Below, piece after piece: positions 20,901-60,763 of a stretch of DNA of 64,000 bases (its first letter is position 1; every line of letters begins with the position of its first letter). The notes under the pieces were generated by a model. The model worked only from the letters and a program-made list of their open reading frames with translations. It did no database searches and was not told the origin of the DNA. The translations under genes and the position numbers were made by a program. The stretch comes from Ustilago trichophora (Eukaryota; Basidiomycota; Ustilaginomycetes; Ustilaginales; Ustilaginaceae), in assembly GCA_900323505.1 (NCBI GenBank), contig OOIN01000006.1, forward strand, positions 62,001 through 126,000, given 5' to 3'.

Positions 20901-21013
20901 CAACTTCTGGCGGCAAGCGAGGCATTGGCGTAGACTTGAGGTTGAGCAGAGGCGACGGCCAAGATGCAGCTGAGTAGCAGCGAGAGGGAGCTGGAGAGCT
21001 TGATGGCCTTCAT
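17915..21013 (-). CDS. KEX2: Kexin, Golgi proprotein convertase
   Basis: 1032 aa from the ATG at 21013; the open frame extends 10 codons upstream without an ATG. A signal peptide (MKAIKLSSSLSLLLSCILAV) leads into a propeptide ending in basic sites (VRRRHKRN, about residue 205). The subtilisin domain carries the triad: Asp in LIDDGLDMHSPD (about 301), His in DDQHGTRCAGEIAA (about 340), Ser in HGGTSAAAPLAAG (about 515), with the oxyanion Asn in FAGGNGGASDDQ (about 441). A P-domain follows (TVRVWITHQRRGDVNVELISP, GEWKLRVFDPAH). One membrane span lies at about 819-840, and the roughly 190-residue cytosolic tail is Asp/Glu/Gly-rich. Kex2 cuts after Lys-Arg and Arg-Arg in the late Golgi to mature secreted precursors. 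It is longer than the yeast enzyme, mostly in the propeptide and tail. Confidence 0.97.
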   Translation of the reverse strand: MKAIKLSSSLSLLLSCILAVASAQPQVYANASLAARSCSDGQAAQAPQLHRRSAHNAWAHQKRTVPLPAKRSYDTHHYYVVEVHARAGQDVDPRHVAESLGAEFVERAGELQNHWLIRSEKPVPELTEVLKKRDPSSSTSSSAASSPRPDVPEHQDPILQRWNRIRRSAREPGFSTKHSLSKRQHAAALSIKAVERQHVRRRHKRNVIYNPEEMPHIYPEIRGPVPAPDAWPFHVRSADPSPRPPVIPTAKTAEMMSKFDIKDPIFTDQWHLANNRKLGNDLNVTAVWDQEILGKGITVCLIDDGLDMHSPDLKENFYAPGSYDFNSHTELPEPRESDDQHGTRCAGEIAAVKNDVCGVGVAYQAKVSGVRILSGPISDVDEAASLNYAYQENDIYSCSWGPPDDGRSMDAPKGLIAKAMLNGVQNGRDGKGSIFVFAGGNGGASDDQCNFDGYTNSIYSMTIAAVDREGQHPWYSEMCSAIIATSWSSGSGDHIHTTDVAWNGVNRCTASHGGTSAAAPLAAGVIALGLSIRPELTWRDVQHIAVRSAVKFNPEDPDWQQTQAGRHFNHKYGYGLIDAYQFVEETKRHKLVNPQAWYESPNITLPATETLITESGTESKFLITEDQLKKANLASLEHVTVRVWITHQRRGDVNVELISPHGTKSALARSRRYDDAMTGFPGWSFMTLKHWDESPIGEWKLRVFDPAHPNKVGNLYAWSMSLWGASIDPSKAVPWNFPEDSVEYHETLAAAPDTTIIKLPPTPTSSAKLKKPTDHLPSDHGSAEGESHIDFTNHNGSVPIAVQPEADTGYISGLKKNSTWVVIAGGLVVIFAGSLAAFFVMRKRKMSRGAGGGGGRGDGGGYESLANDEEVAMGELDDDARASRRGEKSRRTKELYDAFAEGSDDDDEELDQRAGASGGQDTRGLLGRRGTGADEPYRDDIDDDENGDRRFALHDDEAEEDEEGESTLASATRGVESGEKKTAATGAIVDIDDDVDEQEDRRSGGSGSGSGGDGSWQDAAEGRDLIAGLGQK

Positions 21014-22191
21014 CCTTGTTATGGGATTGTTGATTGGGGACAAGGTAGATTAGATGAGATGTGCTGATATGATCAAGATTTCGATCGAAGCCGAAGAGAG
21101 CACTCGGCCAGGAACCGCAACCGCAGAGCCAAAAGGATGTAGAGCAAGACGCTGCTTGATAAAAAGCAGGTCCTCGAAGAAGGAATCGGGTGGTGCCGTT
21201 GGGGCGGTGAAGAGAGAATGAAAAGAAGAGCTCGAGATCTTTAGAGCATTGGTTTGAGAGAGAGAGAGCGAGCAGCCTAAAGGATGTCGATGCTGAGATG
21301 ACGGCAGGAACCGAGAGCAATTCACCACTCTTGTCGAAAGGCGAGCAGCACTTTGTCTTGACTGATCGTATCCACTTGCGATGATGTTGAGAAAGGAAGC
21401 ACAGGTTGAGTGATGAAAGACAAGAAGAAAAGCATCCACGCAAGGGGATGGCAGGTGTGTGTGCTGTGTGCTCAAAGTGTTGGACGAACGACCTGGCCTG
21501 TGTGACAGACACCTCATGAGCCAGGGTCGTCTGTGTGTGTGGGCTGGCAGAAGGAGTCGCTGAAATTGGATTAAAGCTTGATTGGCTGTGTGACAGTGAT
21601 TCGCAGCCAGCACGCGCGCCACTCTGCGTTCCCTTGCACAAAAACTCTTTTTGGCAGCCAGTCGGCCAGAGCGCCAGAGTGAGCTGTCTTGAATTTCACG
21701 CCTTTCTCTGTGCTGTGCTGGCTTGTTGCTTTTGGTGCGTGTTGCTGCCACTACTGCTGCTCTATGCAAGGGTCCCCGCATCGGAGCCTCATCGTTCGCC
21801 ACGCCATACAATTAGTTACGCACTGCACTCTCACAACACACAAGACACGATTCTATGATTAGATCGATGCACCGTTCGGCAGCGTCGATCTCGTGTGATC
21901 GTCAAACCACCTCGCACAGGAGCGCTGTTGACATTCAAGTGTGCTCTTCACTCAACAGCCAGAGTGCTTTGGTCCACCGCTCACGTACGATTAACCAAAT
22001 GCGTTTCTGGTCAGCAAACGTCTGTGCGTGAAAGGATGAGAAAATGTCCATGCATAGCATTGCGAGAGAATCGATACAAGTAAGAGGAAAGAGTCACAAG
22101 AGAGAGTGGATCCGCTCGTGAGCGAGCGATATCAAAACATGGCGCAACGTCCCAGCATTCGCCCAACTAGGCTACAACAGTTTCCGAAGTT
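21014..22191. other. Intergenic upstream of KEX2
   Basis: 1.2 kb with overlapping minus-strand open frames that lack conserved content. It probably holds the KEX2 promoter and leader plus the 3' region of the next minus-strand gene. A GA run lies at 21258-21270. No RNA gene seen. Confidence 0.4.
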
Positions 22192-23445
22192 TTAGAGAGC
22201 ATCGTGCTCGTCAGCAAGCGATCGTTTGCTCTCTGCAGAGCCAAACAAAGGCGAATAGCGCCTCACCAGCCCGTCGGCCGCAGCTGCCACCAGCTCGACG
22301 GGGCTCACGTCGCGCTTAAACGTTGCCATGTCAACAACGTCGGCTTTGGCAAGCTGTCTGCGTACCAGTGCTGCTGCCAGGCTTTCATCCTCACCAGCTC
22401 CCAAAGAACGACGACCTGCACCGGTTAAAGCACTGCCCAGACCGCTGAGGATACCCTGCAGGCTCGATCCGCTCAACGGGCACGGGAATGACACGTTCCT
22501 GTTGATGTTGACCGGCACAGTGATACTGAGCACCTCGACGTCCACCTCGACCTTGAACAGGAAGCTCAGGTCACCCGATCCGCTGCTCGATCCGCCAAAG
22601 ATGTTCAAACCGCAATCCGAAGCAATGTTGCGAATGATGCTCAGATCCGTGTCCTGGCTCTGGTCGTACTTGATCTGGAAGGGGAAGACGACAGTCGTGT
22701 TGGCGTTGGGCTGGATCTTTTGGTTCTCAACCAGACCATGTCCCAGCGCTGTAGACTGGTCCTGCGAATCGTATGCGGTGGCTTTGAGCTTCTTGATGTT
22801 GGCCGAGATCGAGTTGGGGTTGCTAACCGAGATATCTACGCTGACGTTGAAGGCGAAAGCGCCGTTTTGGTACGATACGCCGTTCTGGCTGGGCACGCTG
22901 ACACCCGAGATGGCAACATTAGGAGGACGAAGGAACATGACAATGAGGCAGATGATCGAGACGATCAAGATGACAGCCAGGATGATATTTCCGATCAAGA
23001 CTCGGCAAATCTTGGCGGGAACACTGCGCGAGGCGAGCGCCCGCTTGTCATCCTTTGTCCAGATGCTGTTGCCGCTCGCACGCTTGGCTGCGTACGGGCT
23101 GCCATAGTCGACCTTTTCTGAAGTCATGTTGTGTGCGTTGTCGTTATAAGGGTCACCAGCGCCAGCACGAGTGTCGGCGTAGTTGTTGTAGTCTTGGTCG
23201 TTGTCCCGTTCTCTGTGCAGTCCACGCGATGGATTGTCGTCGTAGCTATCGCCTGCTTGATCGCTGTAGTGATCCGGGTGTGCGCTGCGGGAAGCGTGAT
23301 CTGCGTGGTCCTGATCTGGATGTTGGGCAGAGTATGGATCGTAGTTCTGCTGCGAGTTGGCAGAGTAGGGATCGCGATGAGGATAGTTGGTAGGTGGTAA
23401 GGAAGAAGAGACTTGGGCTCTGGGACTCTGGAAGGCGTACGACAT
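22192..23445 (-). CDS. LEA-2/NDR1-HIN1-like single-pass membrane protein
   Basis: 417 aa. The first 145 residues are hydrophilic and rich in His/Asp/Tyr/Ser (repeated DPYSA and DHAD patterns). One strong membrane span lies at about 147-170 (LIGNIILAVILIVSIICLIVM). The lumenal or extracellular part resembles the LEA-2 (LEA14) beta-sandwich: AFNVSVDISVSNPNSISANIK, later NTTVVFPFQIKY and VEVDVEVLSITVPVNINRNV, closing with a Cys-containing SFPCPLSG. The family is common in fungi and plants, and a lipid-binding or stress role is proposed in plants; no reaction is known. Topology is inferred as type II. The tail after about 330 is Ala/Arg-rich and without known motif. Confidence 0.75.
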   Translation of the reverse strand: MSYAFQSPRAQVSSSLPPTNYPHRDPYSANSQQNYDPYSAQHPDQDHADHASRSAHPDHYSDQAGDSYDDNPSRGLHRERDNDQDYNNYADTRAGAGDPYNDNAHNMTSEKVDYGSPYAAKRASGNSIWTKDDKRALASRSVPAKICRVLIGNIILAVILIVSIICLIVMFLRPPNVAISGVSVPSQNGVSYQNGAFAFNVSVDISVSNPNSISANIKKLKATAYDSQDQSTALGHGLVENQKIQPNANTTVVFPFQIKYDQSQDTDLSIIRNIASDCGLNIFGGSSSGSGDLSFLFKVEVDVEVLSITVPVNINRNVSFPCPLSGSSLQGILSGLGSALTGAGRRSLGAGEDESLAAALVRRQLAKADVVDMATFKRDVSPVELVAAAADGLVRRYSPLFGSAESKRSLADEHDAL

Positions 23446-23924
23446 GATGGGCAGAGCGAATCGAGTCGAAGGAGGGGCGAAAGCAGAGGCGGATAAAGAC
23501 GGAGTCGTTATGGCAGCTGGGAGTGGATACTACTTGAGGCTAGTCAACGTCACGATCCGACACTCTACCTTGTCGCTGCAAAGTTTGGACTCTTCTCGCC
23601 TCGTTTTGCTTTCTTGGCGAGCGAGGAGAAAACGGTCGGGGAATAGAATGCGGCACTGTAGCTCGAAAGGATGGACCCTTGCGACAACAATTTGGGCTAG
23701 GTTATGGCGAGGCAGCGATGGATCAATGACGAGAGGCGAGAGAAGAGTCGTTCAGTCGCACTTTTTTGTTTCGATTAGGGGGAGGGCAGAAGACCGGCTG
23801 TGCAGCGTGGATGCATTGGAACGGATTCATGTGGATTTGATTTGACTGGCAGTGCGTCCATGTGCAGAAGTGAGACCTTTTTTTAGTCGGTGTCTAGCAG
23901 CTACAGTGCAGTACACAGGTCAAA

Positions 23925-23980
<56 letters not shown>

Positions 23981-24793
23981 AAGACAAGCTTAGGCTGTGC
24001 TATGTCAAACAAAGGGCGTCAATGCACACACACAGAGCACAAGACCGGTGTTCGAATTCAACGGCAAAAGTGGAGTTTTCCCAAAAAGCCAGAAAAAGCT
24101 GTGCAGCGCGCATTCACCTCTGATGCCGAGTGGTTGAAATCCTCACCCCGCGCAATGGGCCAGAGTGCAACTTGCCGAGAGCGGTGTGTTGGCTGTTCTA
24201 AAGTTGAGTGATAAATCGCCGATGGACAGGTTGGCCAGGTCGAAATCAAGCGACATCTTTACGACCCTCTGTCTCTGGTTCCCATATTCTATCGGGTGGA
24301 AGTCTCAGCACTCGTAGTAGACTATCAATCTCTCGTGTTGATCTGTGGCAACTTGTCGGATCTGAGGGAGGAAGAGGCTCCTGTGTGTCTTGCATCAGAG
24401 ATGCGGCAAGAGCCATGCCTTGCGTTGGCAGCATCAATTGCAACCTGATGTATTAGCTTGTGCGAGACGTCGTGTCGGTTGTCTTGTTCGTTCATGTCTC
24501 GAAAAGTCAGTGCTTGTCTTCACTTTCGACATCTCAGACTCGGACAAATCGCGTCGGTGTCTCCTCGTTACCAGCAAATACACATGCTGCTCGATGCACT
24601 GCTTGCTGCGACCTTTACATCATCCTCGACGCCCTTCTTGACCCTTCCTGTCTCGCTTTCGGCCTCTGTGCGCTCCTGAGACCTCCTCACGGTCGCCACA
24701 AGCATCTCACCACTTCCTTGCCCCGCAGCTGACTTGTAAAATGACACCAGATGATTGCGCAGTGATCGAATCGTAAATGTACAGGGTGATAGA
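23446..24793. other. Intergenic with (AG)n microsatellite
   Basis: 1.35 kb between two minus-strand genes. A near-perfect AG run lies at 23928-23977. No gene is supported; plus-strand frames here are short and antisense or CT-rich. Confidence 0.45.
23928..23977. repeat. (AG)n microsatellite
   Basis: About 25 uninterrupted AG units in the promoter region of the LEA-2-like gene. Confidence 0.9.
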
Positions 24794-26662
24794 CTAAACT
24801 GGCGCAGCGCATCCAAAAGAAGTAGCAGCGGCACTAGAAGCGAACGTTTCCTTGATACTCGTGCCAGATCCGTACATACCTAAAACGCTAAGCACGTACG
24901 ATCCTAGAGTTACGATCAGAAGGACAATCTTGACGAGGATACCAGGAATGACGACACCCAAGATCTCGTAGTGGCCGCCGAACAGACCACGCTTCCATCG
25001 CGACCACTGACCCCACGTGTCCTGTTTCTGACCGGTGTAGCCGGGGGCGAATGGCACGTCGCCCTCCATCGCATCGCGCCTGATGTAGAAGATGAGTGCG
25101 AGCATGAAGGGGAACGAGTAGGAGAAGTTCATGATGGCGATGGCAGCGATCAAACCCGAAATGGTCTGGACCTGGGGAATCGACGAGGCAATGACAAACG
25201 CAAGTGCCCAGTACACCACCGAGATGCAGGCCCAGATGACTCGACCCCTTGGCGTGTTGAGCGCAGGACCCTTCATGAAGGACTGGACGGTGTTGACGTA
25301 GATGACCTTGAGACCGACGTTACCGTAGAGCGCAGCGGCGATGGTACCGGAAAGAATGGCGAGCATGTTGCAGACGGTCTGGAAGGCGTACTTGTCGATG
25401 CCGTTGTACGACTGTCCGAGCACGTACTGGCCTTGGTAGGCGTAAATCACATTAGCGTAAACGAGGTAGACGGTGCAGATCAAAGCCTGAGCAGAGATCA
25501 TACCCTTCCAGAAATCCATGGGACGACGCATCTCGGCCATGAGTTCAGGGAAGATCATAGCACCACCGTAAGCGAACACCATGTTCATCAATCCGTTGAT
25601 CTTCTGGGAAATGTCGTAAGATACGAAAGCCGAAGTCATGACGGGCTGGTTGTTGTAAGGGTAGTCGGTTCCGTACGAAGCCTGAGCACCGGCAATGTAA
25701 GGACCATACTTGATAATGGCAGCCATCGAGACGACGACGATGATCAAGTTCTGGTAGACGGCGGTGGAAGCGGCGAAACCAAGACCACGGAAGGTCTGCA
25801 CCTGGGCGAAGGCCATACCGATCAGAGCAAAGATGACGACGCAGACCGAGAAGCAAAGGTTGGCGTTACCAGGAGCACCGCTGATGACCTGGCTGAGAGC
25901 CTGGCCATTGGTGAGGCAGATCAAACCGACGTTGATGATAAGCTGGAGCGTCTGGAGGGCGTTGAAGGTCCATCGCATGGGGTAGCCGACGATGCGCTCA
26001 CCGAGGTCACCGTAGGTCTTGACGGGGTAACGAGCCGAATCCACCTGCATAAAGAGCTTCCAGAGCAGAATACCACACCACCAGGCACAGAAACCCATGA
26101 CGATGTACATGACGTTACCTGTCACCCAACCGTTTTGAGACATGGCGTAGGGTGCACCATAAGGACCAAGGATATCGGTGGTGATAAGATAGAAGACACC
26201 AACCCAGGAAGCAGTCTTGATGGCTCGATGGGCATTGCGGCTCTCCTTCTCAACCTCAGAGAGACCGTCGAGCTGGTCAAAGGTGGAAGCGTCGGTGTTG
26301 TTGACGTGAGGCTTGACAGCGCCGGTCTCAGCGGAACCGCTGTGCTGGCTAGTTTTCTCGAAAACGTGCTTTTCGTTGGCATCCTCGAGGTATCCAGCAC
26401 CGTTGGGAGCGCTGGGCTCGACGGCGACACCAGCGGCACCGTACAGCTTTTCCTGCTCGCGCTGAATCTGGGCGTAAAACATGTACTCCTCGAGCGAGAT
26501 ACCGCTTTGAGGAGGTGCCTCGTAGAGCGCAGGGACGGGAGCAAGACCGGGAACACCCTGACCGGGAAGATCAGACTGGTGAGTCTCCTCCTGGTTCGAG
26601 GTGTGGTGAGTCCTCTCGACCTCATGGGCCTTGACGTGTTCTACAGCGTCCTTGATACCCAT
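24794..26662 (-). CDS. AAAP-family amino acid transporter
   Basis: 622 aa from the ATG at 26662 (MGIKDAVEHVKAHEVER). A 145-residue cytosolic N-terminus is followed by about eleven membrane spans of the Aa_trans type (PF01490). The first reads TASWVGVFYLITTDILGPYG and APYAMSQNGWVTGNV, as in fungal vacuolar and plasma-membrane neutral amino-acid transporters. Others include LLIYLV-like spans, MVFAYGGAMIFPELMAEMRRP and NFSYSFPFMLALIFYIRRD. The family moves amino acids with protons. Substrate and membrane cannot be read from sequence, although the long N-tail is common in basidiomycete members. A long antisense frame covers the gene and is a codon-bias shadow. Confidence 0.88.
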   Translation of the reverse strand: MGIKDAVEHVKAHEVERTHHTSNQEETHQSDLPGQGVPGLAPVPALYEAPPQSGISLEEYMFYAQIQREQEKLYGAAGVAVEPSAPNGAGYLEDANEKHVFEKTSQHSGSAETGAVKPHVNNTDASTFDQLDGLSEVEKESRNAHRAIKTASWVGVFYLITTDILGPYGAPYAMSQNGWVTGNVMYIVMGFCAWWCGILLWKLFMQVDSARYPVKTYGDLGERIVGYPMRWTFNALQTLQLIINVGLICLTNGQALSQVISGAPGNANLCFSVCVVIFALIGMAFAQVQTFRGLGFAASTAVYQNLIIVVVSMAAIIKYGPYIAGAQASYGTDYPYNNQPVMTSAFVSYDISQKINGLMNMVFAYGGAMIFPELMAEMRRPMDFWKGMISAQALICTVYLVYANVIYAYQGQYVLGQSYNGIDKYAFQTVCNMLAILSGTIAAALYGNVGLKVIYVNTVQSFMKGPALNTPRGRVIWACISVVYWALAFVIASSIPQVQTISGLIAAIAIMNFSYSFPFMLALIFYIRRDAMEGDVPFAPGYTGQKQDTWGQWSRWKRGLFGGHYEILGVVIPGILVKIVLLIVTLGSYVLSVLGMYGSGTSIKETFASSAAATSFGCAAPV

Positions 26663-39613: not shown

Positions 39614-40196
39614 TCTGCCCCTGCTCCTGCCCCTGCCACCGTATCCGATCCAACAACAGAAGACGTCGAAATGGCCGTCTCTACCGTCTCTCATCCTGCT
39701 CCCGATCTCGTCGCAGCCGATGTCACTGGAGGTGTAGCTGCCCCTCTCAAGGCCACCAGTCCTTTCGCTTCAGCTACTTTGCCCAACAATGCTGCCGATC
39801 CTCGTCTCAACTTGCCGCTACTCGGCACAATGACCCCCGAGGAAGCACAGCGCTTCGGTCTCAACCATCTTCACAACATCGGCCCTGGATCCTCGTATAG
39901 CTCACCTCCGCAGGCTTTTCGTCCTCCATCCAACTCACCTCAGCCGTTCCAGGCCAAAATGTCACCGCCTACTCCTTCTCCGGTCGTCAAGCCAACCGAT
40001 GTGACCCCAACTCCATCAGCCGCGCCCCCTGGCGCTTCCACTTCGGCTGCTTCCGATGCCACTTCAGTGCCAGCTACTACAGCTCCCAAGATGGCTCCCG
40101 TCGTCGCTGGAATGGGCACCTTGCCTCCTAACGTCGTAGCTGCAGCAGCTGCTGCTTCTTCTGGCTCAAATGCATCCGCATCTGGCTCCGGCTCCG

Positions 40197-40269
<73 letters not shown>

Positions 40270-42643
40270 CTTTTCCGCCTCCGACAGCTTGCGCGCCATC
40301 CCAACCAACAAGAACAACCCTGCCTTCCTCAACAAGCTCCGCAGCATGGTCGACGATCCCAACACCGACGAACTCATTCGATGGTCTCCCGACGGTGCCT
40401 CTTTCTTTGTCCCCAACCACGTCCGTTTCGGCGACGAAGTTTTGCCACGCTTCTTCAAGCACAATCGATTCTCGTCCTTTGTCCGTCAACTCAACATGTA
40501 TGGCTTCCACAAGGTACCCCATCTCCAGCAGGGCGCTCTCAAGCATGACTCTCCTCAGGAGAGCGAGCTGTGGGAGTTTTCCAATCCGCACTTCCACAGA
40601 GACCATCCCGACTGGCTCTCCAAAGTGCAGCGCAAGAAGGGCCCTCGCGATGACAAGGAGACGCACGGCGAGCGCGAAGCAAGCGCAAGCACGGGTCAGG
40701 AGCTCATGCATGCAGGTGCGCTCATGAGAACCGACTTTGGCACCAAAGGCGTCGGCGTCGATGCCAATGGCGATGGTGCACTTCAGCTCGCTAGTGTGTT
40801 GAACGCCATCAATGCGATCAAGAATGCTCAGACAAGCATTAGCGCAGATCTGCGTCATTTGCAAAACTCGAACCAGAACCTCTGGCAGGAAGCAGTCGAG
40901 TCTCGACAACGCGCAAAGCGTCAACAGGAGACCATCAACAAGATTCTTCGTTTCCTCGCTGGTGTCTTTGGAAATCAGGAAGATGCCGAAACGCCTGTGC
41001 AGGGCAAGAAGGTATCGGGTAAAGGCCGTGGCGGAGGGCGAAGGGTCGGCGTCCGTCCGCAACAGCAGCGCAACAAGAGTCGGCTCATGATTGAGGACGG
41101 TTCCTCTGCCTCTGCCCTGCGTGGCTTGGAGGGCTTGGAGCTGCCCACGGATGAAGAAGAGATCGAAGAGATGCCCTCTCACCTCAGATTCCAGGAAGCC
41201 AGCAGTGGAGATTCGCCCAAGGGTCAAAGTCCCTCCAACAACGGTGGATCGAGATTCACTCAGATTGGCTCTCCGCCCAACAGCACCAGCGCCAACGATT
41301 TCAGCAGGCAACTGTCAGAAGCAGTATCTACCCCAGGCGGATCCAGAAGGTTGTCATCGCAAGCGAGCAATCAGGTGCTCAATGCATTAGCTTCAGGCGA
41401 AGGCAATGCTTGGCTGGCCAGTCTGTTCGGTGCAAGTCTGGCCAATCAGGGGTCCAAGTCGACTGGTCCTGCTTCGGGAGGTGGATTGAAGCTGGACCCG
41501 CAGATGGTAGCTGCGCTTCAGCAGGCCCTGGCTAGTGCAGGCAGTGGCACTGGTGGAGCGAATAGCACCGACAATGGGGCAGACTACTTTGGTGGAGGAT
41601 CTGGTAATGCAGATGTCGATGATTTCTCATCGCGCTTCTCTGCATTCCCTTCCTCCAGTGGCTCCAGCAGCAACGCTTCGGCGCAGCAAACAACCAACAA
41701 CCACCAGGGACTAGGATTGGACGCCGACGCACTCGCCAGAATCGCAGGCATCTCTCAGGCCCTTGTTCAGTCTCCTGCTCGACAGAACCTCAACTCCGGT
41801 GCTGGCAGCAATCACAACAACAGCAACAGCTTCAACATCTCTTCGCCCACCAAAGGCTCAGCCAGCCTGTTCGACAGCGGCTCTGTCGACGATGGTAGCA
41901 ACAATCAGCAGCTCGCTCTCTCACTCTCAAGAGCCACACGCGACCTTCAGGATACATCCAGCAACGTCGATCAAGTCACCAACAGCATCAACTCTCTCAT
42001 CGAAGGCTTGCAGACCAATCCCAACCTCTTGCAGGGCATTGGAGGTCAGCCATCGCAGCCGCAGTCTATTGCCGGTTCATGGCCAAATGCAGCTGCAACT
42101 GAACCATTCGGTGCGGGTATCAATGCGTTTGACAACTCGACGCAGCAGCAATATCCCGGAGGACCCTCAGGGGCCACTCCACCCACAACAGCAGCAGCAG
42201 CAGCAGGCGCAGGCGGAGCGAGTGGGGGGATGGACGATTTCGACGTAGACTCATTCTTGAGTCAGTTTGTCGACTCTTCCCAAGCGCCTGGAGGAGGGGT
42301 GACTAGCCCACTCTCCAACCATGCCTCGGCGGCGACTGGGGCGGCAGCGATGACGCCATATGGCGAGAGCCCCAGTTTTGCCTTTTCTCCAGCCACTACG
42401 GCGGCATTCCTGAACGGAGCTGCTGGCGTGGATGCACCTGGGATCTATGCTCAGGAGGTAGGTGGATCCGGTAGTGCCTCGGGGACCAGCTCGAGCACTG
42501 CCAGCCCACCCGAAAATAACGGGCCGTGGAATACGGCGGGCAAGAAGAGAAAGCCTTCCGCATCAGGAGTCAGCGCCAGTGGGACCGATGTAGAAATGCT
42601 CCCGGCTAGGCCGGTGAAGAAATCGGCTAGCAGGAAGAATTGA
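39293..42643 (+). CDS. HSF-type heat-shock transcription factor
   Basis: 1116 aa from the ATG at 39293 (MSNSTSPASTPIPP). The open frame begins earlier at a GTG but has no ATG. The DNA-binding domain lies at about residues 338-445: PAFLNKLRSMVDDPNTDELI, then RWSPDGASFFVPNHVRFGDE, LPRFFKHNRFSSFVRQLNMY, GFHKV, and a closing WEFSNPHFHRDHPDWL. The winged-helix recognition segment FSSFVRQLNMYGFHK is intact. A coiled-coil oligomerisation region follows (LRHLQNSNQNLWQEAVESRQ). The remainder is Ser/Gln/Gly-rich activation-type sequence ending in a basic KKRKPSASG patch. The N-terminal 330 residues contain an AP run (about 75-107) and an SG run (about 297-326) made of hexanucleotide arrays. HSF trimers bind nGAAn repeats. 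Hsf1 versus Skn7/Sfl1-like cannot be fixed, but the lack of a receiver domain argues against Skn7. Confidence 0.93.
39519..39612. repeat. (CTCCTG)n in-frame minisatellite coding (Ala-Pro)n
   Basis: About 15-16 near-perfect hexanucleotides inside the HSF gene, in phase so that each unit encodes Ala-Pro. Units are almost identical at the DNA level, which indicates recent slippage or recombination expansion rather than codon choice. Confidence 0.93.
40183..40270. repeat. (GGCTCT)n in-frame minisatellite coding (Ser-Gly)n
   Basis: About 14-15 hexanucleotides just before the HSF DNA-binding domain. The first few units are GGCTCC, the rest GGCTCT. Length changes are in-frame and would move the linker that leads into the DNA-binding domain. 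Confidence 0.93.
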
Positions 42644-42744
42644 CGAGCAGAGTGTCAATCCTGAGGGAGATGTGGGGAGGAGACCTTAGAGGGTTTCAAA
42701 ATTGAACGTTTTCGCAATGCAGCTTGTATTTGTACAGATGACTA

Positions 42745-42785
42745 ACGTAATTCATGTATTAGTCGCGCGCCCGTATTAGTCGCGC
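42745..42785 (+). repeat. Left terminal inverted repeat, 41 bp
   Basis: Starts ACGTAATTCATG and contains two copies of GTATTAGTCGCGCG (42756-42769 and 42773-42786), 17 bp apart. It matches the right TIR in inverted orientation with one C/T difference at 42772. Confidence 0.95.
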
Positions 42786-42918
42786 GTTCTCCTACCTTGA
42801 AATCGATCCTGATGGTAGTACTTGGCATGATCGTGAGCACAGCCCTCGGTGAATGGAACAACATTAAACTTCAATGACAATCACATGAGACATTAAGGTA
42901 CATGATGACTGAGTCAGG

Positions 42919-44781
42919 CTAGAGCTTGACACGAGATGAGCTTGCCACGGGAACATTGTCATAGAAGCAGGCTGGATCAATATCATTGTCTTCGATGGGG
43001 CTGAGAGGCTCACCATCATCAAGCATGTTGATAATCTCCGGCACTGCTGATGTAGTTGGGTTGGTTGATGATGCTGAGGCACTGTTGTTGTGATCAGCAC
43101 ATGCTTTGTCGCCATCACTGATCATAGCAGAAGGCGGTAGTGCTGCCCGCTTCTCCTGCTGTCGCTGTTTCTTCCTCCGTTCCTGCTTCTGCCGAGCAGC
43201 AATTGCCGGCTTCTTTCGGACCAACTCCTGCTCTGCATGCTGGCGAGTGATCATGATGTCTTTGGATAATATCATCTGATCGCCAACCTTCTTCTTACCC
43301 TTCGTTTTCTTGGCTGCTTGTCGTCGCCGCTCCTCCTGTTCCTGAAGAAGCTTATTCTCAGCTTTTAGCACTGCGATTGATGCATGTGGACCTTCAAACG
43401 CCTGCATGAGTGTGTTTTTGATTGAAGAGGCATCCCAAGGATTTGGTTCGTGCCTGAAGGAGTCAAGCACCGAGCTAACCGCCGTACTTGTTTGCGGAGG
43501 AAGGTGTTCCTGCAGCGGCGATTGTTGTGGTGTTCCTGTCCGTTGAGCTTGTTTGTGCCCAGCAAGTCGGCTCAGTACCTTCTCGGCGTTAGGTCTGACA
43601 GCAATTCCGCAGTCGGCAAATGCTTTCCGGGCTGCAGTTGGCGTAAGAGCCTTCTCTCGTGCCTGGGCGTAGAATGTAACAAACTGAGATCAATTAACAT
43701 CCGACACTGATTGTGGCGCAAGGTTGTTTATTATCTGCTTGTAAGCAGCACTGACAGGACCAAACACCGAGACATCAAGCGGCTGCATGATGTGTGTTGA
43801 ATGAGCCGGGAAGCAGAACGGAATAATGCGACGATTCCATGCAGCAACCAGAAACTCGGTACTGGTGTGTGAATTGTGGCCGTCAATGATCAGCAAACGC
43901 CACTGTGATGGCGTTGAGGGCGTAGTGTTGGCGTCAAACACTGTTTTCAGCCAATCAACAGCAAGCTCTTGAGTTGTCCAGCCTCTGTCGGTCTTTGCAA
44001 AGTGCCATGATGCAGGAACATTTGCCATTTTCCGGTGTTCGCCAACCATGTGGCTTGCGCCTTTGGTGATGATCACGGGCGGAAGTACCTGACCGCCCGT
44101 TCCGATGCATTCAATTGCCGTAGCTGACTCTCGGGTTCCTGGCTGTGCCTTGAAGCGAGCTGCTTGATCACCGGAAGGTACAATTACCCGCTCGGAACCA
44201 CCTTGACCAAACCTGAAGCCGGTTTCATCCATATTGAAGATATTCGTTGATGCCACACTGTATTCATTCACAATATTACCCAATTGCTGGTACCATTGTT
44301 GTATTCCATGCTTGTCTGTTCCAGTGAGCCGGGCATTGTCAAGACACCGGGACCAATGAGAGCGAATGCTTGGATGCCGAAGTAGGAACCCTTGGAGCCA
44401 ATTCCGTCCGACGTTGGGGGCATCACTGCAGCCGGGGATGCCACGTGAGACAGTGTTTGCATAGTCCCTGATCTGCGCTGGTGTCAAAGGAAAGCCGCTG
44501 CAGGCACAGCGCCGTATGTGTTCTAGAAGCGCTGTCTCTGCTGCCGGCGTGAGTGCCTGCATGGAAGCGTGACCTTCTTTTATAGTTGGAACACCAGAAA
44601 GTCGGCCACGCAGGGTTGATTCAGGCACATTGTTTGCAGCCGCAGCTTTACGGATGCTGGAGTATGTTCCATTGCCTAGCTCAGCTGCCGCTTGTTGAAG
44701 CCGAGCTTCTTGTTGGTCACGATCAGCGGCACGAGCAGCTCGAGATGTTGTGGAGCGCTTGGAAACTGATGGTGTAGTCAT
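42919..44781 (-). pseudogene. Pogo/Fot1-like transposase with one in-frame stop
   Basis: Reading from the ATG at 44781, 363 codons run to a TGA at 43690-43692. The same frame then stays open to a second stop at 42919, about 619 aa in all. The N-terminus has a psq/CENP-B-type helix-turn-helix (YSSIRKAAAANNVPESTLRG) and a second CENPB-like DNA-binding part (ALLEHIRRCACSGFPLT... RNWLQGFLLRHP). The DDE_1 domain follows with acidic residues in NIFNMDETGF, RLLIIDGHNSH and HIMQPLDVSVFG, i.e. a DDD triad. After the stop, QFVTFYAQAREKALTP and the coiled, Lys/Arg-rich tail (QKQERRKKQRQQEKR) continue the family pattern. The stop most simply derives from CGA by C-to-T change. A short transposase up to the stop keeps the triad but lacks the C-terminal part, so activity is doubtful. 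Confidence 0.93.
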
Positions 44782-44967
44782 TGCAGGGTCCGGAATGCTG
44801 GAAAGAAGGTTAGATTGCAGATGTAAGGGTCAGGTGGTGGTGATGACGATGGCAAAGGTTGGATCGATATACAAGATGGTGGGGCTCATGCAAGGTACAA
44901 ACACAGTGGAGGCCATCATGCAAGGCACTACCACCAGGCACGGTGGGGAATTTTGGAATTCGTCGAT

Positions 44968-45008
44968 GCGCGACTAATACAGGCGCGCGACTAATACATG
45001 AATTACGT
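44968..45008 (-). repeat. Right terminal inverted repeat, 41 bp
   Basis: Inverted partner of the left TIR; 40 of 41 positions agree. It contains the same doubled GTATTAGTCGCGC motif, with T instead of C at one CpG. Confidence 0.95.
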
Positions 45009-45193
45009 TATTTCGGTGTGTGGTGTTGTGAATCGAGTCATTCTTCACTCTTCACCGCCATGCCACTACTGTGTGCGATGTCAATTTGAGAGATGTTCCA
45101 TTTTCTACACCAATCTACGGTATATGATCTACGATTGGTATATGATCTACATCGTATGATATCTTTCTATCGTTGGAGAGTTTATGCTTAGGA

Positions 45194-46900
45194 TCAGTTG
45201 GCTTTCTCCGCCTCTGCACCCATCACCGCAGAGGTCTCTGCGGTGGTAGTTGCACTCGCCTCTTCAGCGTCGAACCGACCGAAACCTCTTGTCCTGAACA
45301 GCACCTCATCCAGATCCAGCGGGCCCTTGAACTCTCTCTTCCCCAGTGCCACCCACGCAACACCGCTCATCAGTGCCACTACGGCCACTACGACCACTGT
45401 ATAGTTCATACTGCTTCCCGTTGTGGGCAGTTCGGGGGGCAAGAGGAAGAATACGTCTGTGAACAGTACAAAGAGTACTGCAAAGGTGTTGATCATCGGG
45501 CCGAGTCGGCGGCCCAAATCGAAGCGTCTTTTGCCATCGTTTGCTTCATCATCCAGCACCTGTCTACCTCTGAGGAGTAAGAGGGTGATGGGGATGATGT
45601 AGGAGAATTGCAAGAGGACAACAGAGGATGAGAGGATAGCGTTGAGGGCGCTGGAGCTACCGAGGTAAATGCAACCAAAGACGATGACCCAAAGAGTGGT
45701 GAGGACGAGGGAAGGGATGGGCACTTCGTTTCGAGCGCTGATGCGGGCGAGAATGTTGGAGAAGGGAAGACCTTTGTCTCGTGCAAAAGCTTGGGTCATG
45801 CGTGAACTGGTGGTGAGCAAAGCTGTGGCGGTGAAAGCCATTGAGCAAACGGGGAACATGAGCAAGCAGACCGCCCCCGCTCGATTTCCAACCGCCTGAT
45901 AGATGATCTCCAACAACGGTCCCGCTGGAGAGCTGATAACCCCATCGAAATCTTTGAGAACAAACAGGAAGACCATCAGGACGATAAATGTCGAACTAGC
46001 CCCAATAGCCACGGCCAAGATCATTGCCCTAGGAGCATTGATCGACGGTTGATCGATCTCGTCGATCAGATGCGTCGCGCCATCGCTACCCAGCAACGAG
46101 AAAGCTGCCTGGAGCAAGCCCAAGATCCACGCCACGCCATTGTTCCATCCTGTCTCGTTGACAAATTTGCCAAAGACAAACTTTGCATCCTGGTAGTTGG
46201 GCGTTGCTCTAGCCAGACAGGTGATCATGATGACCAGCGCACCCAACAGGCTCCAGATCATAGCGGTTCGGTTGAGCGTGTCGAGGAGTCGGACTCCAAA
46301 TGCGTTTATGCACCATGCTCCGAGGCTGAAAGCTACGTAGACGAGGAAGATGTGCCACGGTTGAGATTCATAGTTCGGGTGGAGGAGGGCGATGATGCCG
46401 ACGATGAATTGGCCAGCGAGGGAGGATGCGGTGGCGGTAAGTGCGACCCAGCCGGCAACGCTGATCCATCCAGTGAAATAGGCTACGGTGTAGCGGTAGC
46501 GAGGAGGGCTGAGGAGGAAGCTCCAGTGATACTGGCCGCCTGTGGTGGGGAAGACGTGACAGATTTCAGCCATGGATAGGGCGGTGGCCATGACTCCGGT
46601 GAAGGCGACGACCATGCCCCAGAGAGTTACCGAGGGTCCACCCGAGATGAGGGCGATGGAAAGGGAGGCCGAGGCAGCAGTCCACGAGTTGAGAATGCAG
46701 TAGCATAGTCCGATGAGGGCGAGGGTGGAAAAGTGTTTGACTTCGATGGTGTTCGCTTGGTGGTGGGGTTTCGAAGTGGTGGCATGGGGCTGATGCGGGT
46801 GAGCACGGTAGTCGTGGAGTGACTGGGTGGCTACCTGGGCAGTCTTCTCGGCAGCCATCGTGTTTGATGCTGCCGTCTTGGTGGGCGTCGCGGTTGACAT
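45194..46900 (-). CDS. APC-superfamily amino acid/GABA/choline permease
   Basis: 568 aa from the ATG at 46900 (MSTATPTKTAASN); the frame extends 18 codons to a GTG without a better start. About twelve membrane spans follow a 50-residue polar N-tail. The first spans (FSTLALIGLCYCILNSWTAA, SLSIALISGGPSVTLWGM) and MAEICHVFPTTGGQYHW are typical of the amino-acid/choline transporter (ACT) family that includes Uga4 and Bio5. The block GSDGATHLIDEIDQPSINAPRAM matches the conserved 'A..H.aEE...a....P.ai' helix. SRMTQAFARDKGLPFS and VPIPSLVLTTLWV are also family segments. It probably imports GABA, choline or a similar amine with protons; the substrate is not readable. Its 3' end faces the pogo element 185 bp away. 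Confidence 0.9.
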   Translation of the reverse strand: MSTATPTKTAASNTMAAEKTAQVATQSLHDYRAHPHQPHATTSKPHHQANTIEVKHFSTLALIGLCYCILNSWTAASASLSIALISGGPSVTLWGMVVAFTGVMATALSMAEICHVFPTTGGQYHWSFLLSPPRYRYTVAYFTGWISVAGWVALTATASSLAGQFIVGIIALLHPNYESQPWHIFLVYVAFSLGAWCINAFGVRLLDTLNRTAMIWSLLGALVIMITCLARATPNYQDAKFVFGKFVNETGWNNGVAWILGLLQAAFSLLGSDGATHLIDEIDQPSINAPRAMILAVAIGASSTFIVLMVFLFVLKDFDGVISSPAGPLLEIIYQAVGNRAGAVCLLMFPVCSMAFTATALLTTSSRMTQAFARDKGLPFSNILARISARNEVPIPSLVLTTLWVIVFGCIYLGSSSALNAILSSSVVLLQFSYIIPITLLLLRGRQVLDDEANDGKRRFDLGRRLGPMINTFAVLFVLFTDVFFLLPPELPTTGSSMNYTVVVVAVVALMSGVAWVALGKREFKGPLDLDEVLFRTRGFGRFDAEEASATTTAETSAVMGAEAEKAN

Positions 46901-57493: not shown

Positions 57494-58858
57494 ATGTCTG
57501 CCGAGGAGCAAGTTATAACCAGAAGCGTCGATTCAGCTGAGCCTCACACGCCAACTTCATCGGAACAGACGCTGCAGCCCACACCCACCGAAAACATGAT
57601 CACTCCAGCTGCTGTGGCTTCGTCCGCCATCGGTCCTATTCGCAATGCCGTTCGCACTGCCACCACCGCCACCTCTGCTACCGCCTCAACATCGGCTCGT
57701 CCCCTCTCTGGTATCTTTGGAATCAACAAGCCCAGCGGTCCCACCTCCATGTCTCTGCTGGACGATCTCAAACCCTTGTTCGCGACCTCACCACTCTTCG
57801 CCGATGCCGACGGTAAACGTCCCAAGGACAATAACTCTCGCAAGCGCGGCAAGTTTGGCAAAGGCAAAAGCAAGTGGGCTGGTGGCGTCGCTGGCGCACC
57901 CAAACTCGGTCAAGGTGGAACTCTCGACCCGCTCGCAGATGGCGTCCTAGTCGTTGGAGTCGGAAACGGCACCAAACAGCTGCAAAAGTATCTCGACTGT
58001 ACCAAAGAGTATCGCAGCACGGGACTCCTCGGTTCTGCAACTACCTCTTACGACTCGTGCGATCCCATCCTTACTCGTAAGCCGTACGATCACGTTACGC
58101 CTCAGCAGATCGCCCACCTGCTACCGAGGTTCACTGGGACAGTCAAGCAGATCCCTCCACTGTACTCGGCGGTACGCATCGATGGCAAGCGACTGTTCGA
58201 GTACGCACGTGACAACTTGCCACTACCGAGACCCATCGAGCCTCGTAAAGTCACGATCCACGAACTGAGGCTGGTCGACTGGTTGGAAAGTGGCAAGCAC
58301 GGATTCAAGGAGCCCGAACGAGAGGTACCGGCTGAGGATAAGGCGTTGGTGGGGAGAGTGCTCGATATGGCTGGTCGCAAAGAAGGTCAGACCGACACTG
58401 TCAAAGAGGAAACGGACGACAACGCTGAGTCCGCCGATGCACCTGCACCGGCGACAAGCTGGAAACGGCTCCCAACGAGCAAAGATGGTCCTACCGAAAC
58501 AGAAAGCAAATCCACAGAAGGCGATGCAGGACCACCAGCATTCGTACTCGAAATGACCGTTTCGTCAGGTACATACGTCCGTTCGATTGTACACGACCTC
58601 GCCATAGCAGCAGGCTCAGCAGCACACGTTCAGACACTCACTCGAACACGACAGGGCGAATGGTCGATCGACACCATTTCCGAGGGCAGCTCACAGGACA
58701 ACGTGGTTCCCGGAAACTGCATCGAGTGGAAGGTGTTTGCAGACGCCATTGCCGACATGCAACGGGAAAAGACGGATGCCACATACAGATCGCCTCGTGA
58801 TGAAGAAGGGCTGCGCGAGTGGGAGCGACAGCTGCTCAAAGTCATTGTTCCTGTCTAA
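57494..58858 (+). CDS. PUS4: tRNA pseudouridine-55 synthase (TruB/Pus4)
   Basis: 454 aa from the ATG at 57494 (MSAEEQVITRSVDSAEP); the frame is open far upstream but only with leader-like sequence. The TruB core is clear: GIFGINKPSGPTSMSLLDDL, then GQGGTLDPLADGVLVVGVGN with the catalytic Asp at about residue 144, then TKEYRSTGLLGSATTSYDS, IPPLYSAVRIDGKRLFEYAR, and EMTVSSGTYVRSIVHDLA. An insertion rich in Gly/Lys (about 105-135) and one rich in Glu/Asp (about 285-335) lengthen it. Pus4 makes pseudouridine 55 in the T-loop of nuclear and mitochondrial tRNAs and also modifies some mRNAs. Confidence 0.95.
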   Translation: MSAEEQVITRSVDSAEPHTPTSSEQTLQPTPTENMITPAAVASSAIGPIRNAVRTATTATSATASTSARPLSGIFGINKPSGPTSMSLLDDLKPLFATSPLFADADGKRPKDNNSRKRGKFGKGKSKWAGGVAGAPKLGQGGTLDPLADGVLVVGVGNGTKQLQKYLDCTKEYRSTGLLGSATTSYDSCDPILTRKPYDHVTPQQIAHLLPRFTGTVKQIPPLYSAVRIDGKRLFEYARDNLPLPRPIEPRKVTIHELRLVDWLESGKHGFKEPEREVPAEDKALVGRVLDMAGRKEGQTDTVKEETDDNAESADAPAPATSWKRLPTSKDGPTETESKSTEGDAGPPAFVLEMTVSSGTYVRSIVHDLAIAAGSAAHVQTLTRTRQGEWSIDTISEGSSQDNVVPGNCIEWKVFADAIADMQREKTDATYRSPRDEEGLREWERQLLKVIVPV

Positions 58859-59039
58859 GGATTGCCTTTACGGGGCGAAGAAAAAAAAAAAATAAAAGAG
58901 CAGATGATGCTAGATTGCAACACGCGAAAACAAAGCGGGGGATATCGACACAAAAAAAGACCTGTGTATGAAGGTAAATGTTCTCGAAGCTGTATGTATA
59001 TCAGAGAGACTATATGAGGGCCCCGGAGAGCAAATAAGG

Positions 59040-60139
59040 TCACAAGTGACTGTTCAGCCAGCTGTCGTTCAGGATGATGCACATTGAGAAAAAGAAGGGA
59101 TCAGATCAGCAACATGATGCAAGGGCAAATTTCAGAACAAGTGGGATGAAACTTACTTGATGACATATTCGCCGACAATGACCTTGTCCTGGCCAGGCTC
59201 GTTGAGCAGGTCGTGGTAGTAGCCGTCGAAAAGCTTGATGGTCTTGTCGCTCGCCTTGACGCGTTCCACAAATTTCTCTGAGCCTTTGTGGCTGGTTACA
59301 AGATCGCTGGTTCCGTGGATGACCAGCAACGGCTTCGACTCTGGCCACTGCTGATATGCTTTGTCTACCATGTCCATGCCACCTTGGAGCGGTCCCTGGA
59401 TCGCCTTGAGGTAGACCTTCTTGTCCGAGAGCGGGTCATTTTCAAAGTTCTTTGCTACGACAGGATCTCTCGAGATATTCTTGCCCATCAGGTCCACACT
59501 CCAGTGCATCTCTGGGATGATGGAGAGCAACTTTGTCGCACCCCACACAACAAACCACGGCGGAGGCTTGGTAAGTGTCAACCAGGGAGCGCAAGCCACG
59601 ACACCAGCGACCATCTCCTTTGCCTCCTGCGATGGACCATTGCCACCGTGCTGCCGCTTCCACTCCTCGCTGCGCGTGTGGAACGCCGTCACGATACCAC
59701 CGCCCATACTGTGTCCCAGCAAGAAGATGGGCACCTTGTTGGTGCCCCACCTCTGATCCAAGCGCTGTCGAGTCTGGCGGATGACAAATTCGAGATCCTG
59801 AAACTGTTGCGGCCAAGTGGTGTTGCCGTAATTCTTGACAGGGTCGGAAGAGGAGCGGCAGGTGTTGCCCCAACCGCGCTGGTCAAAGCCGAGGATCTCA
59901 TGGCCTTTGCTGGGCCATAGCTTGAAAATGTTGCGGTAGCGATCTACGTACTCTACAAAGCCGTGGACAAAGATGGTGGTGGATTTGGGCTGAACTTCTT
60001 GATCGCCTTCAGTGGGGTAGAAGCGCTTGGCCCAGAAGCGTGTCTTGTCCGAGTAGTCGGTGTCGATCCAGAACTGTTCGGAGTTGCCCCCGTTGGGGAT
60101 GTCGATCTCGGGAGGGACGGTAGGCTGCTTTCCAGTCAT
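59040..60139 (-). CDS. YJU3: Monoglyceride lipase (Yju3-like), two exons, PTS1-type end
   Basis: Start ATG at 60139 (MTGKQPTVPPEIDIPNG). The alpha/beta-hydrolase core has HGFVEYVDRYRNIF near the oxyanion, LGHSMGGG with Ser at about residue 142, the acid in VIHGTSDLVTSHKG, and His in DGYYHDLLNEPG. The first exon (59157-60139) ends in codons for EYVI plus AA, immediately followed by GTAAGT. The donor's TAA makes an apparent stop (ending ...VIK). A 95-nt intron with a CGACAG acceptor joins it to exon 2 (59040-59061), giving N-W-L-N-S-H-L and a TGA, 334 aa in total. The spliced end matches the monoglyceride-lipase C-terminal 'WL' helix, and the last three residues fit the PTS1 pattern. The enzyme hydrolyses monoacylglycerol to fatty acid and glycerol; in yeast it is on lipid droplets. 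Confidence 0.9.
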
Positions 60140-60691: not shown

Positions 60692-60763
60692 GCCTCCTTA
60701 GCTCAGCGGTAGAGCACTTCACTAGTAATGAAGAGGTCAGTCGTTCGAGTCGGCTAGGAGGCA
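60692..60763 (+). tRNA. tRNA-Thr, anticodon AGT
   Basis: 72 nt, no intron. The acceptor stem GCCTCCT pairs with AGGAGGC, with A as discriminator at 60763. The D arm is GCTC..GAGC with loop AGCGGTA. The anticodon stem is CTTCA/TGAAG with loop CTAGTAA, anticodon AGT at 60724-60726. The T arm is AGTCG-TTCGAGT-CGGCT, and the variable region is AGGTC. A CTTTTT run just after (about 60767-60772) suits Pol III termination. The internal A box (TAGCTCAGCGGTAGAG) and B box (GTTCGAGTC) are the promoter. A34 would be edited to inosine to read ACU/ACC/ACA. Confidence 0.97.

What the first reader, a model, noticed from the sequence alone, without database searches (positions are those of the whole stretch)
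59040..59165. Monoglyceride lipase: stop codon embedded in a splice donor; spliced form ends in Ser-His-Leu (PTS1-type)
The sequence shows GTCATCAA|GTAAGT, so reading through gives ...VIK-stop, while splicing the 95-nt intron to the CGACAG acceptor adds NWLNSHL-stop in frame. SHL fits the PTS1 pattern [SAC][KRH][LM]. In Ustilago and relatives, alternative splicing and stop read-through are known to expose cryptic PTS1 signals on cytosolic enzymes. A lipase that would be cytosolic or on lipid droplets when unspliced and partly peroxisomal when spliced would link monoacylglycerol breakdown to peroxisomal beta-oxidation. Whether both forms exist is inference.
Basis: partly seen in the sequence, partly recalled or inferred. 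Interest (0 to 1): 0.75.

Follow-up and report, generated by a model that had tools for sequence, protein, structure and literature searches.

The report
Smut monoglyceride lipase, spliced C-terminal exon
A fungal fat-splitting enzyme has an ordinary last intron whose first bases happen to contain a stop codon; the normally spliced protein ends in a possible peroxisome address tag, but nothing here shows that the fungus uses the unspliced form as a second, cytosolic enzyme.

Summary
The gene is a Yju3-type monoglyceride lipase on the minus strand (ATG 60139) with a 95-nt phase-2 intron, 59156-59062, beginning GTAAGT. Unspliced it ends ...VIK-stop (328 aa); spliced, ...VINWLNSHL (334 aa). A second copy in the same 38.8-Mb genome has the same site, donor and ending. 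The dual-form reading is weak: a donor stop follows automatically from GTRAGT in phase 2 (about a fifth of Yarrowia introns), the unspliced form lacks a conserved aromatic residue and a third of the last helix, and the nearest outside relative seems to lack the donor stop. The spliced form is most likely the enzyme. The PTS1 question stays open: SHL is in published U. maydis patterns and is SHL/SRL in the close relatives read to their end, but it is the ordered end of the terminal helix, where PTS1-like triplets occur internally in 12-32% of tailed relatives. Unexpectedly, most fungal homologues listed end in a canonical PTS1 on a separate tail (98 of 98 new rows of one capped search, ascomycetes where named, bar one record; 78 of 110 of a basidiomycete-directed one). 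Peroxisomal monoglyceride lipase therefore looks widespread in Dikarya, with smuts among the lineages lacking the tail.

The parts
59157..60139 (-). exon 1 of a monoglyceride lipase (alpha/beta hydrolase, PF12146), from ATG to ...GTCATCAA
   Evidence: Pfam PF12146 E 4.5e-44; invariant S144, D279, H309 in a 16-sequence alignment
59062..59156 (-). last intron, 95 nt, phase 2, GTAAGT...CAG; its first bases give an in-frame TAA if retained
   Evidence: same site in the C7 copy with a 104-nt intron
59040..59061 (-). 22-nt terminal exon: completes codon N328 (AA|C), then W329-L330-N331-S332-H333-L334 and stop TGA 59042-59040; candidate PTS1 Ser-His-Leu
   Evidence: identical peptide in C7 copy, U. 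nuda and Kalmanozyma
59050..59061 (-). 12-nt stretch ending in a second CAG; if that CAG were used as acceptor instead the protein would end ...VINHL (no PTS1)
   Evidence: hypothetical, the stretch is also ordinary coding sequence

Best explanation
This is an ordinary Yju3-type monoglyceride lipase gene whose last, phase-2 intron is spliced constitutively. The 22-nt last exon encodes the end of the C-terminal helix that the family shares. The stop in the donor is a consequence of GTAAGT in phase 2, and retained transcripts would give a truncated, probably unstable protein or be degraded. Whether the SHL end also works as a weak PTS1, so that the normal enzyme is wholly or partly peroxisomal, is undecided (about 0.35). 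Shown: gene structure, both readings, the second copy, homologues, fold and C-terminal statistics. Inferred: constitutive splicing, instability of the short form, localisation.
For: Donor GTAAGT (a full match to the usual consensus, recalled) with a CAG acceptor, kept in both genome copies although the intron itself has diverged. The Trp inside the extension is invariant in 13 of 13 aligned homologues and in 15 of 16 in the other set, the sixteenth being P0005, an ORF that stops before it; many mushroom homologues have Phe there. The AF2 model of the spliced U. nuda orthologue has a terminal helix 321-335 of 337, with mean pLDDT 98 over the last block, so retention removes residues 331-337, including Trp332; the short form itself was not modelled. 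Closest solved fold: yeast monoglyceride lipase 4zwn/4zxf. Donor stops are common: in Yarrowia GTGAGT in phase 2 alone makes a stop in 209 of 1,083 introns (PMC2911113, passages). P0001, the closest relative outside this genome (88%), is one continuous frame through the intron position and still ends SWLESHL, so its donor appears to carry no stop (read back from protein, inference).
Against: No RNA data for this organism could be examined, so the retained fraction is unknown. The donor stop is present in 3 of the 4 loci where the intron can be inferred (window, C7 copy, P0005).
Confidence: 0.82

Rival explanations
1. The spliced enzyme is peroxisomal: in this smut group, which lacks the separate PTS1 tail of other fungi, the end of the terminal helix (SHL/SRL) serves as PTS1. 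No isoform switch is needed.
For: SHL is in the PTS1 patterns used for U. maydis (S[SNH]L in PMC4207609, section 18 read; [SA][RKHQNS][LI] in PMC11842775, passage). SHL or SRL in 6 of 6 close sequences read to their end while neighbouring residues vary (DWISSRL in Testicularia, WLESHL in P0001). The family is PTS1-ended in most fungal rows listed: 98 of 98 new rows, 78 of 110 new rows, and 14 of 14 named ascomycete rows, whose query ended SHL. SNL, the end of the Parajaminaea homologue, works as an import signal in a U. maydis acyl-CoA oxidase (PMC9133605, passages).
Against: The tripeptide is ordered in the model, whereas the SKL tail of Podospora is disordered, pLDDT below 50 at 300-305. The shortest PTS1-bearing tail among placed tailed relatives runs 6 residues beyond this point. 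The same helix position shows a PTS1-like triplet in 36 of 189 (strict), 61 of 189 (2025 pattern) or 22 of 189 (2014 pattern) tailed relatives, where it is internal and cannot act. P0045, named Mycobacterium ulcerans, ends WITARL, and unnamed rows like it end WINARL or WIEAKL. P. flocculosa KRC, Thecaphora KHL and Violaceomyces KRV do not fit. An inhibitor study in U. maydis (monoacylglycerol lipase inhibitor URB602) argues for lipid breakdown by cytosolic lipases, though it names no gene (PMC3362563, section 11 read).
Confidence: 0.35
2. One reading: regulated retention of the last intron makes a cytosolic or lipid-droplet form ending VIK, and splicing makes a peroxisomal form.
For: U. maydis has a case of this kind: about 10% of gapdh mRNA is alternatively spliced to add a PTS1 (PMC3798556, passages). 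The donor stop is present in both genome copies and, by its ORF end, in P0005.
Against: The short form lacks the conserved Trp and part of the last helix. A donor stop is an everyday by-product. It is not present in P0001 as far as can be read. The donor matches the full consensus, which favours efficient splicing (recalled).
Confidence: 0.04
3. A choice between two CAG acceptors 12 nt apart (ends NSHL versus NHL) tunes the signal.
For: Both acceptors exist in frame in both copies.
Against: The second CAG is simply coding sequence for the conserved helix; the first CAG after the branch region is normally used (recalled); skipping removes the Trp.
Confidence: 0.02

Closest known systems
Yeast monoglyceride lipase Yju3 (4zwn, 4zxf)
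   Same: Best solved fold and sequence relative; same fold, and its QWLDKH aligns with the smut NWLNSH
   Different: About 23-24% identical. Its natural C-terminus and location were not examined here; some homologue records are named 'localizes to lipid particles'.
PTS1-tailed fungal monoglyceride lipase homologues (ascomycetes, many mushrooms listed, Sporobolomyces)
   Same: Same family, same helix with a [WF]-xxx-[HR] end
   Different: They carry a tail of 6 or more residues after the helix, mostly ending SKL, AKL, AKM, SKM or PKL; the smut protein stops at the helix end
U. maydis gapdh cryptic peroxisomal targeting by alternative splicing (Freitag et al. 2012, not read; via passages of PMC3798556 and PMC3798809)
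   Same: Splicing at the 3' end can decide whether a PTS1-like end is present
   Different: There an alternatively spliced transcript was measured; here the short form is cut inside a conserved helix and no transcript is known
U. maydis stop read-through PTS1 (UGA CU context, PMC4207609, passages and section 18)
   Same: Same group of organisms, PTS1 as end point
   Different: Neither stop fits: TAA-GT at the retained donor, TGA-CC (window) or TGA-GC (C7 copy) at the end, and no PTS1 follows
Peroxisomal lipases of S. cerevisiae: Lpx1, Lpx2, Fsh3 (PMC9513677, passages)
   Same: Lipases inside peroxisomes are known in a fungus
   Different: Other proteins; Yju3 and monoacylglycerol do not occur in that text
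Monoglyceride lipase with PTS in euglenozoans and Naegleria (PMC9512073, one passage)
   Same: Peroxisomal or glycosomal monoglyceride lipase already proposed
   Different: Different eukaryotes

Membership tests
Monoglyceride lipase, Yju3/MGLL type (PF12146 Hydrolase_4) | Ser-Asp-His triad with GxSxG and domain score above cut-off | tested here: met
   GHSMG with S144, D279, H309 invariant in 16 sequences; PF12146 151 bits, cut-off 27; best fold 4zwn. Triad assignment by family knowledge; activity not tested.
PTS1 cargo protein | C-terminal tripeptide fits the PTS1 pattern | tested here: met
   SHL fits both published U. maydis patterns
PTS1 cargo protein | Tripeptide conserved in orthologues | tested here: inconclusive
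   Fits in 6 of 6 close sequences read to their end, not in P. flocculosa, Thecaphora and Violaceomyces
PTS1 cargo protein | Tripeptide accessible, in a flexible end | tested here: inconclusive
   Model shows a helix to residue 335 of 337, pLDDT 98; a tailed relative is disordered there
PTS1 cargo protein | Pex5 binding and peroxisomal location | not testable with these tools
   no wet data
Cryptic peroxisomal targeting by alternative splicing | Two stable transcripts | not testable with these tools
   no RNA reads for this organism
Cryptic peroxisomal targeting by alternative splicing | Both isoforms keep the complete conserved enzyme | tested here: not met
   By sequence the retained form lacks the conserved Trp and 5 of 15 residues of the last helix; the short form was not modelled or assayed
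Cryptic peroxisomal targeting by alternative splicing | Switch arrangement conserved in relatives | tested here: inconclusive
   Donor stop in 3 of 4 loci where the intron can be inferred; P0001 appears stop-free
UGA-CU read-through PTS1 | TGA CT context followed by an extension ending in PTS1 | tested here: not met

The most novel reading that the evidence does not exclude
A smut lineage replaced the floppy PTS1 tail of fungal monoglyceride lipase by a helix-end PTS1 encoded on a separate 22-nt last exon, so that the efficiency of splicing this one intron sets how much enzyme is peroxisomal.
Probability: 0.05. Interest if true: 0.6.

Novelty: new member of a known kind. Interest (0 to 1): 0.3.

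Why it matters
The proposed switch is probably ordinary splicing. The by-product is more useful: the listed filamentous ascomycete homologues, and most rows of a basidiomycete-directed search, end in a canonical PTS1. This predicts that monoglyceride hydrolysis is at least partly peroxisomal in many filamentous fungi, and makes the smuts and rusts whose proteins stop at the helix natural test cases of losing or re-making that signal. Six searches of the open library joining monoglyceride or monoacylglycerol lipase with peroxisome or PTS1 terms and one broader search listed, by title and start of abstract, no paper on a PTS1-bearing fungal monoglyceride lipase. Papers outside that library and most full texts listed were not read.

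Tried and rejected
Other acceptors: AGs between 40 and 650 nt after the donor were tried in both copies. Only the expected CAG gives an end that fits the 2025 pattern. Read-through of either stop, looked at by eye in the same output, gives no PTS1.

Control in the own genome: Pfam PGK (PF00162) gave no candidate at all, although a fungus should have this gene. I took this as a limit of the first look and dropped the plan to check the known cryptic PTS1 genes here, so that positive control is missing.

Base rate of donor stops in this genome: in 264 kb (the window plus 20 arbitrary 10-kb stretches), 5 of 152 non-overlapping frames of 150 aa or more end inside GTRAGT, this gene included, and 4 have a branch-like and acceptor-like sequence behind them. 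My rough arithmetic expects about 2 by chance, so this count carries little weight. The base-rate argument rests on the Yarrowia paper and on arithmetic.

Weak own-genome hits L008 and L009 (32-33% over about 135 residues): frames of 300 or more residues were printed but not pursued.

C-terminal counts: rows not placed by the helix rule were dropped, 33 of 270 and 10 of 208. The rule misplaced a few (for example WLGHGT), so I quote. One search listed the best 120 of 2,325 proteins (98 new) and the best 120 of 816 (110 new), so neither samples all fungi. The 98 were ranked by a profile that already held seven PTS1-ended ascomycete sequences, a possible bias, without them, gives 14 of 14 named ascomycetes. 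The 32 of 110 misses include fragments, rusts, Malassezia, Tilletia, Acaromyces and Sympodiomycopsis, but also mushrooms such as Psilocybe, Galerina, Ganoderma sinense, Cyathus and Hydnum.

Two peroxisome papers, one on U. maydis and one on Aspergillus, searched for SHL and lipase gave no mention, and a third, on U. maydis, had neither word.

Full report
The sequence is as described. On the minus strand an alpha/beta hydrolase gene starts at ATG 60139 and its first exon runs to 59157. A 95-nt intron occupies 59156-59062, and 22 nt of coding sequence follow to the TGA at 59042-59040. Reading on without splicing gives ...VGEYVIK and TAA; splicing gives ...VGEYVINWLNSHL. The start codon is chosen by likeness to relatives; the mechanical ORF list starts further upstream at a TTG.

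The genome holding the window has 38.8 Mb in 45 contigs, and this locus has a second copy on contig C7. The C7 copy has the same intron position, the same GTAAGT and CAG, a 104-nt intron, and encodes 334 aa ending NWLNSHL. Its coding sequence is 92.3% identical (57 synonymous and 17 replacement codons), while the intron aligns with 68 identical columns of 104. That is how a real intron between two real exons should look.

The protein is a monoglyceride lipase of the Yju3 type. Pfam PF12146 scores 151 bits. The nearest solved chains are yeast monoglyceride lipase, and S144, D279 and H309 are invariant in 16 aligned homologues.

The donor stop needs no special explanation. An intron that begins GTAAG or GTGAG and splits a codon after its second base always gives TAA or TGA at once. 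In Yarrowia the GTGAGT donor alone does so in 209 of 1,083 introns (PMC2911113, passages read). My own count in 264 kb of this genome, 5 of 152 long frames, is too small to separate from chance.

The short form is an unlikely enzyme. The extension contains a Trp that is invariant in 13 of 13 aligned homologues and is Trp or Phe in the wider set, where the placing rule itself asked for one of the two. In the model of the U. nuda orthologue the last helix spans 321-335 of 337 with mean pLDDT 98 in the last block, so retention would cut it after 330. The short form was not modelled, and AF2 does not test stability, so this is inference.

Conservation of the arrangement is mixed. The donor stop is seen in the window and in the C7 copy, and is inferred for P0005, an ORF from an unnamed contig that ends VIK. 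P0001, the nearest relative outside this genome at 88%, is instead a continuous frame through the intron position...EYVI-G-24 residues-SWLESHL. Reading it back, a 75-nt stop-free intron with a GTAT or GTAC donor fits; I could not see its DNA. In that species retention would not remove the SHL end.

Is SHL a PTS1? For: two patterns published for U. maydis include it (PMC4207609, section 18; PMC11842775, passage). SHL or SRL ends 6 of 6 close sequences read to their end: window, C7 copy, U. nuda, Kalmanozyma, P0001 and Testicularia; P0005, P0009 and P0010 were set aside as cut or chimeric. Against: three other Ustilaginomycetes end KRC (P. flocculosa, in Ustilaginaceae by NCBI), KHL (Thecaphora) and KRV (Violaceomyces) (taxonomy). 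The tripeptide coincides with the end of the conserved helix. In 189 tailed homologues the triplet at that same internal place fits a strict PTS1 pattern in 36, the 2025 U. maydis pattern in 61 and the 2014 pattern in 22, against 0.7-1.8% for internal triplets at large under the two published patterns. P0045, named Mycobacterium ulcerans and so without peroxisomes, ends WITARL; unnamed rows like it end WINARL or WIEAKL. The chance baseline here is therefore above ten percent, not a fraction of a percent. A study of U. maydis with a monoacylglycerol lipase inhibitor attributes lipid breakdown to cytosolic lipases, without naming a gene (PMC3362563, section 11 read).

The unexpected result is the rest of the family. 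All 98 new rows among the best 120 of 2,325 proteins in the second search end in SKL (56), AKL (31), PKL (9) or SRL (2); where named these are filamentous ascomycetes, apart from one record labelled Phytophthora cactorum whose last ten residues equal those of a Daldinia row. In one search, whose single query ended SHL, 14 of 14 named ascomycetes also fit. In the third search, directed at basidiomycetes (best 120 of 816), 78 of 110 new rows fit the 2025 pattern and 70 the strict one. These include 5 of 5 Sporobolomyces rows (SKL) and many mushrooms; two Melampsora rows end SHV and THA and Cronartium ends AHI at the helix end, the last of which fits the 2025 pattern. In tailed, PTS1-bearing proteins the signal ends at least 6 residues beyond the helix position, and in the Podospora model those residues are disordered (helix 281-297, pLDDT below 50 at 300-305). 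The simplest history is a peroxisomal enzyme early in Dikarya, with the tail lost in this smut group and in rusts. Whether the smut helix end has taken over the signal is a direct, easy test. No tree was built, so this history is inference.

A peroxisomal monoglyceride lipase is not new as an idea: one review notes a PTS on it in euglenozoans and Naegleria (PMC9512073, one passage), and yeast peroxisomes hold other lipases (PMC9513677, passages). Dual targeting by splicing is known in U. maydis gapdh, where about 10% of the mRNA is alternatively spliced (PMC3798556, passages). What is missing here is any transcript.

Noticed in passing
window 42743-45011: A repeat of about 2.27 kb with about 43-nt terminal inverted repeats, two 100%-identical copies elsewhere (C34, C6, the latter slightly shorter) and twelve near-full-length ones at 86-88%, absent from the matching place on C7: looks like a recently moved DNA transposon.
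   Followed up: partly
window 20000-26000, 40000-46000, 58000-59300: Each of the three tested pieces has a collinear, inverted partner on contig C7 at 82-90% identity, and the assembly is about twice a usual smut genome (about 20 Mb, recalled): the genome seems to hold two diverged sets, hybrid or highly heterozygous diploid.
   Followed up: partly
proteins P0062-P0269, not in the window: Fungal monoglyceride lipase homologues carry a canonical PTS1 on a variable tail in 98 of 98 and 78 of 110 new rows of two capped searches.
   Followed up: yes
proteins P0164, P0165, P0167, not in the window: Tilletia, Tilletiaria and a Malassezia record show the lipase together with a glycosyltransferase family 8 domain (PF01501) in one 686-709 aa model; neighbouring genes merged by annotation or a real fusion, not checked.
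   Followed up: no
window 60692-60763: tRNA-Thr (AGT) beside the lipase gene, also next to the C7 copy by eye.
   Followed up: no
window 57494-58858: Convergent neighbour on the plus strand looks like a TruB-type pseudouridine synthase; its stop lies about 180 bases from the lipase stop (family name from recall of motifs, no search).
   Followed up: no
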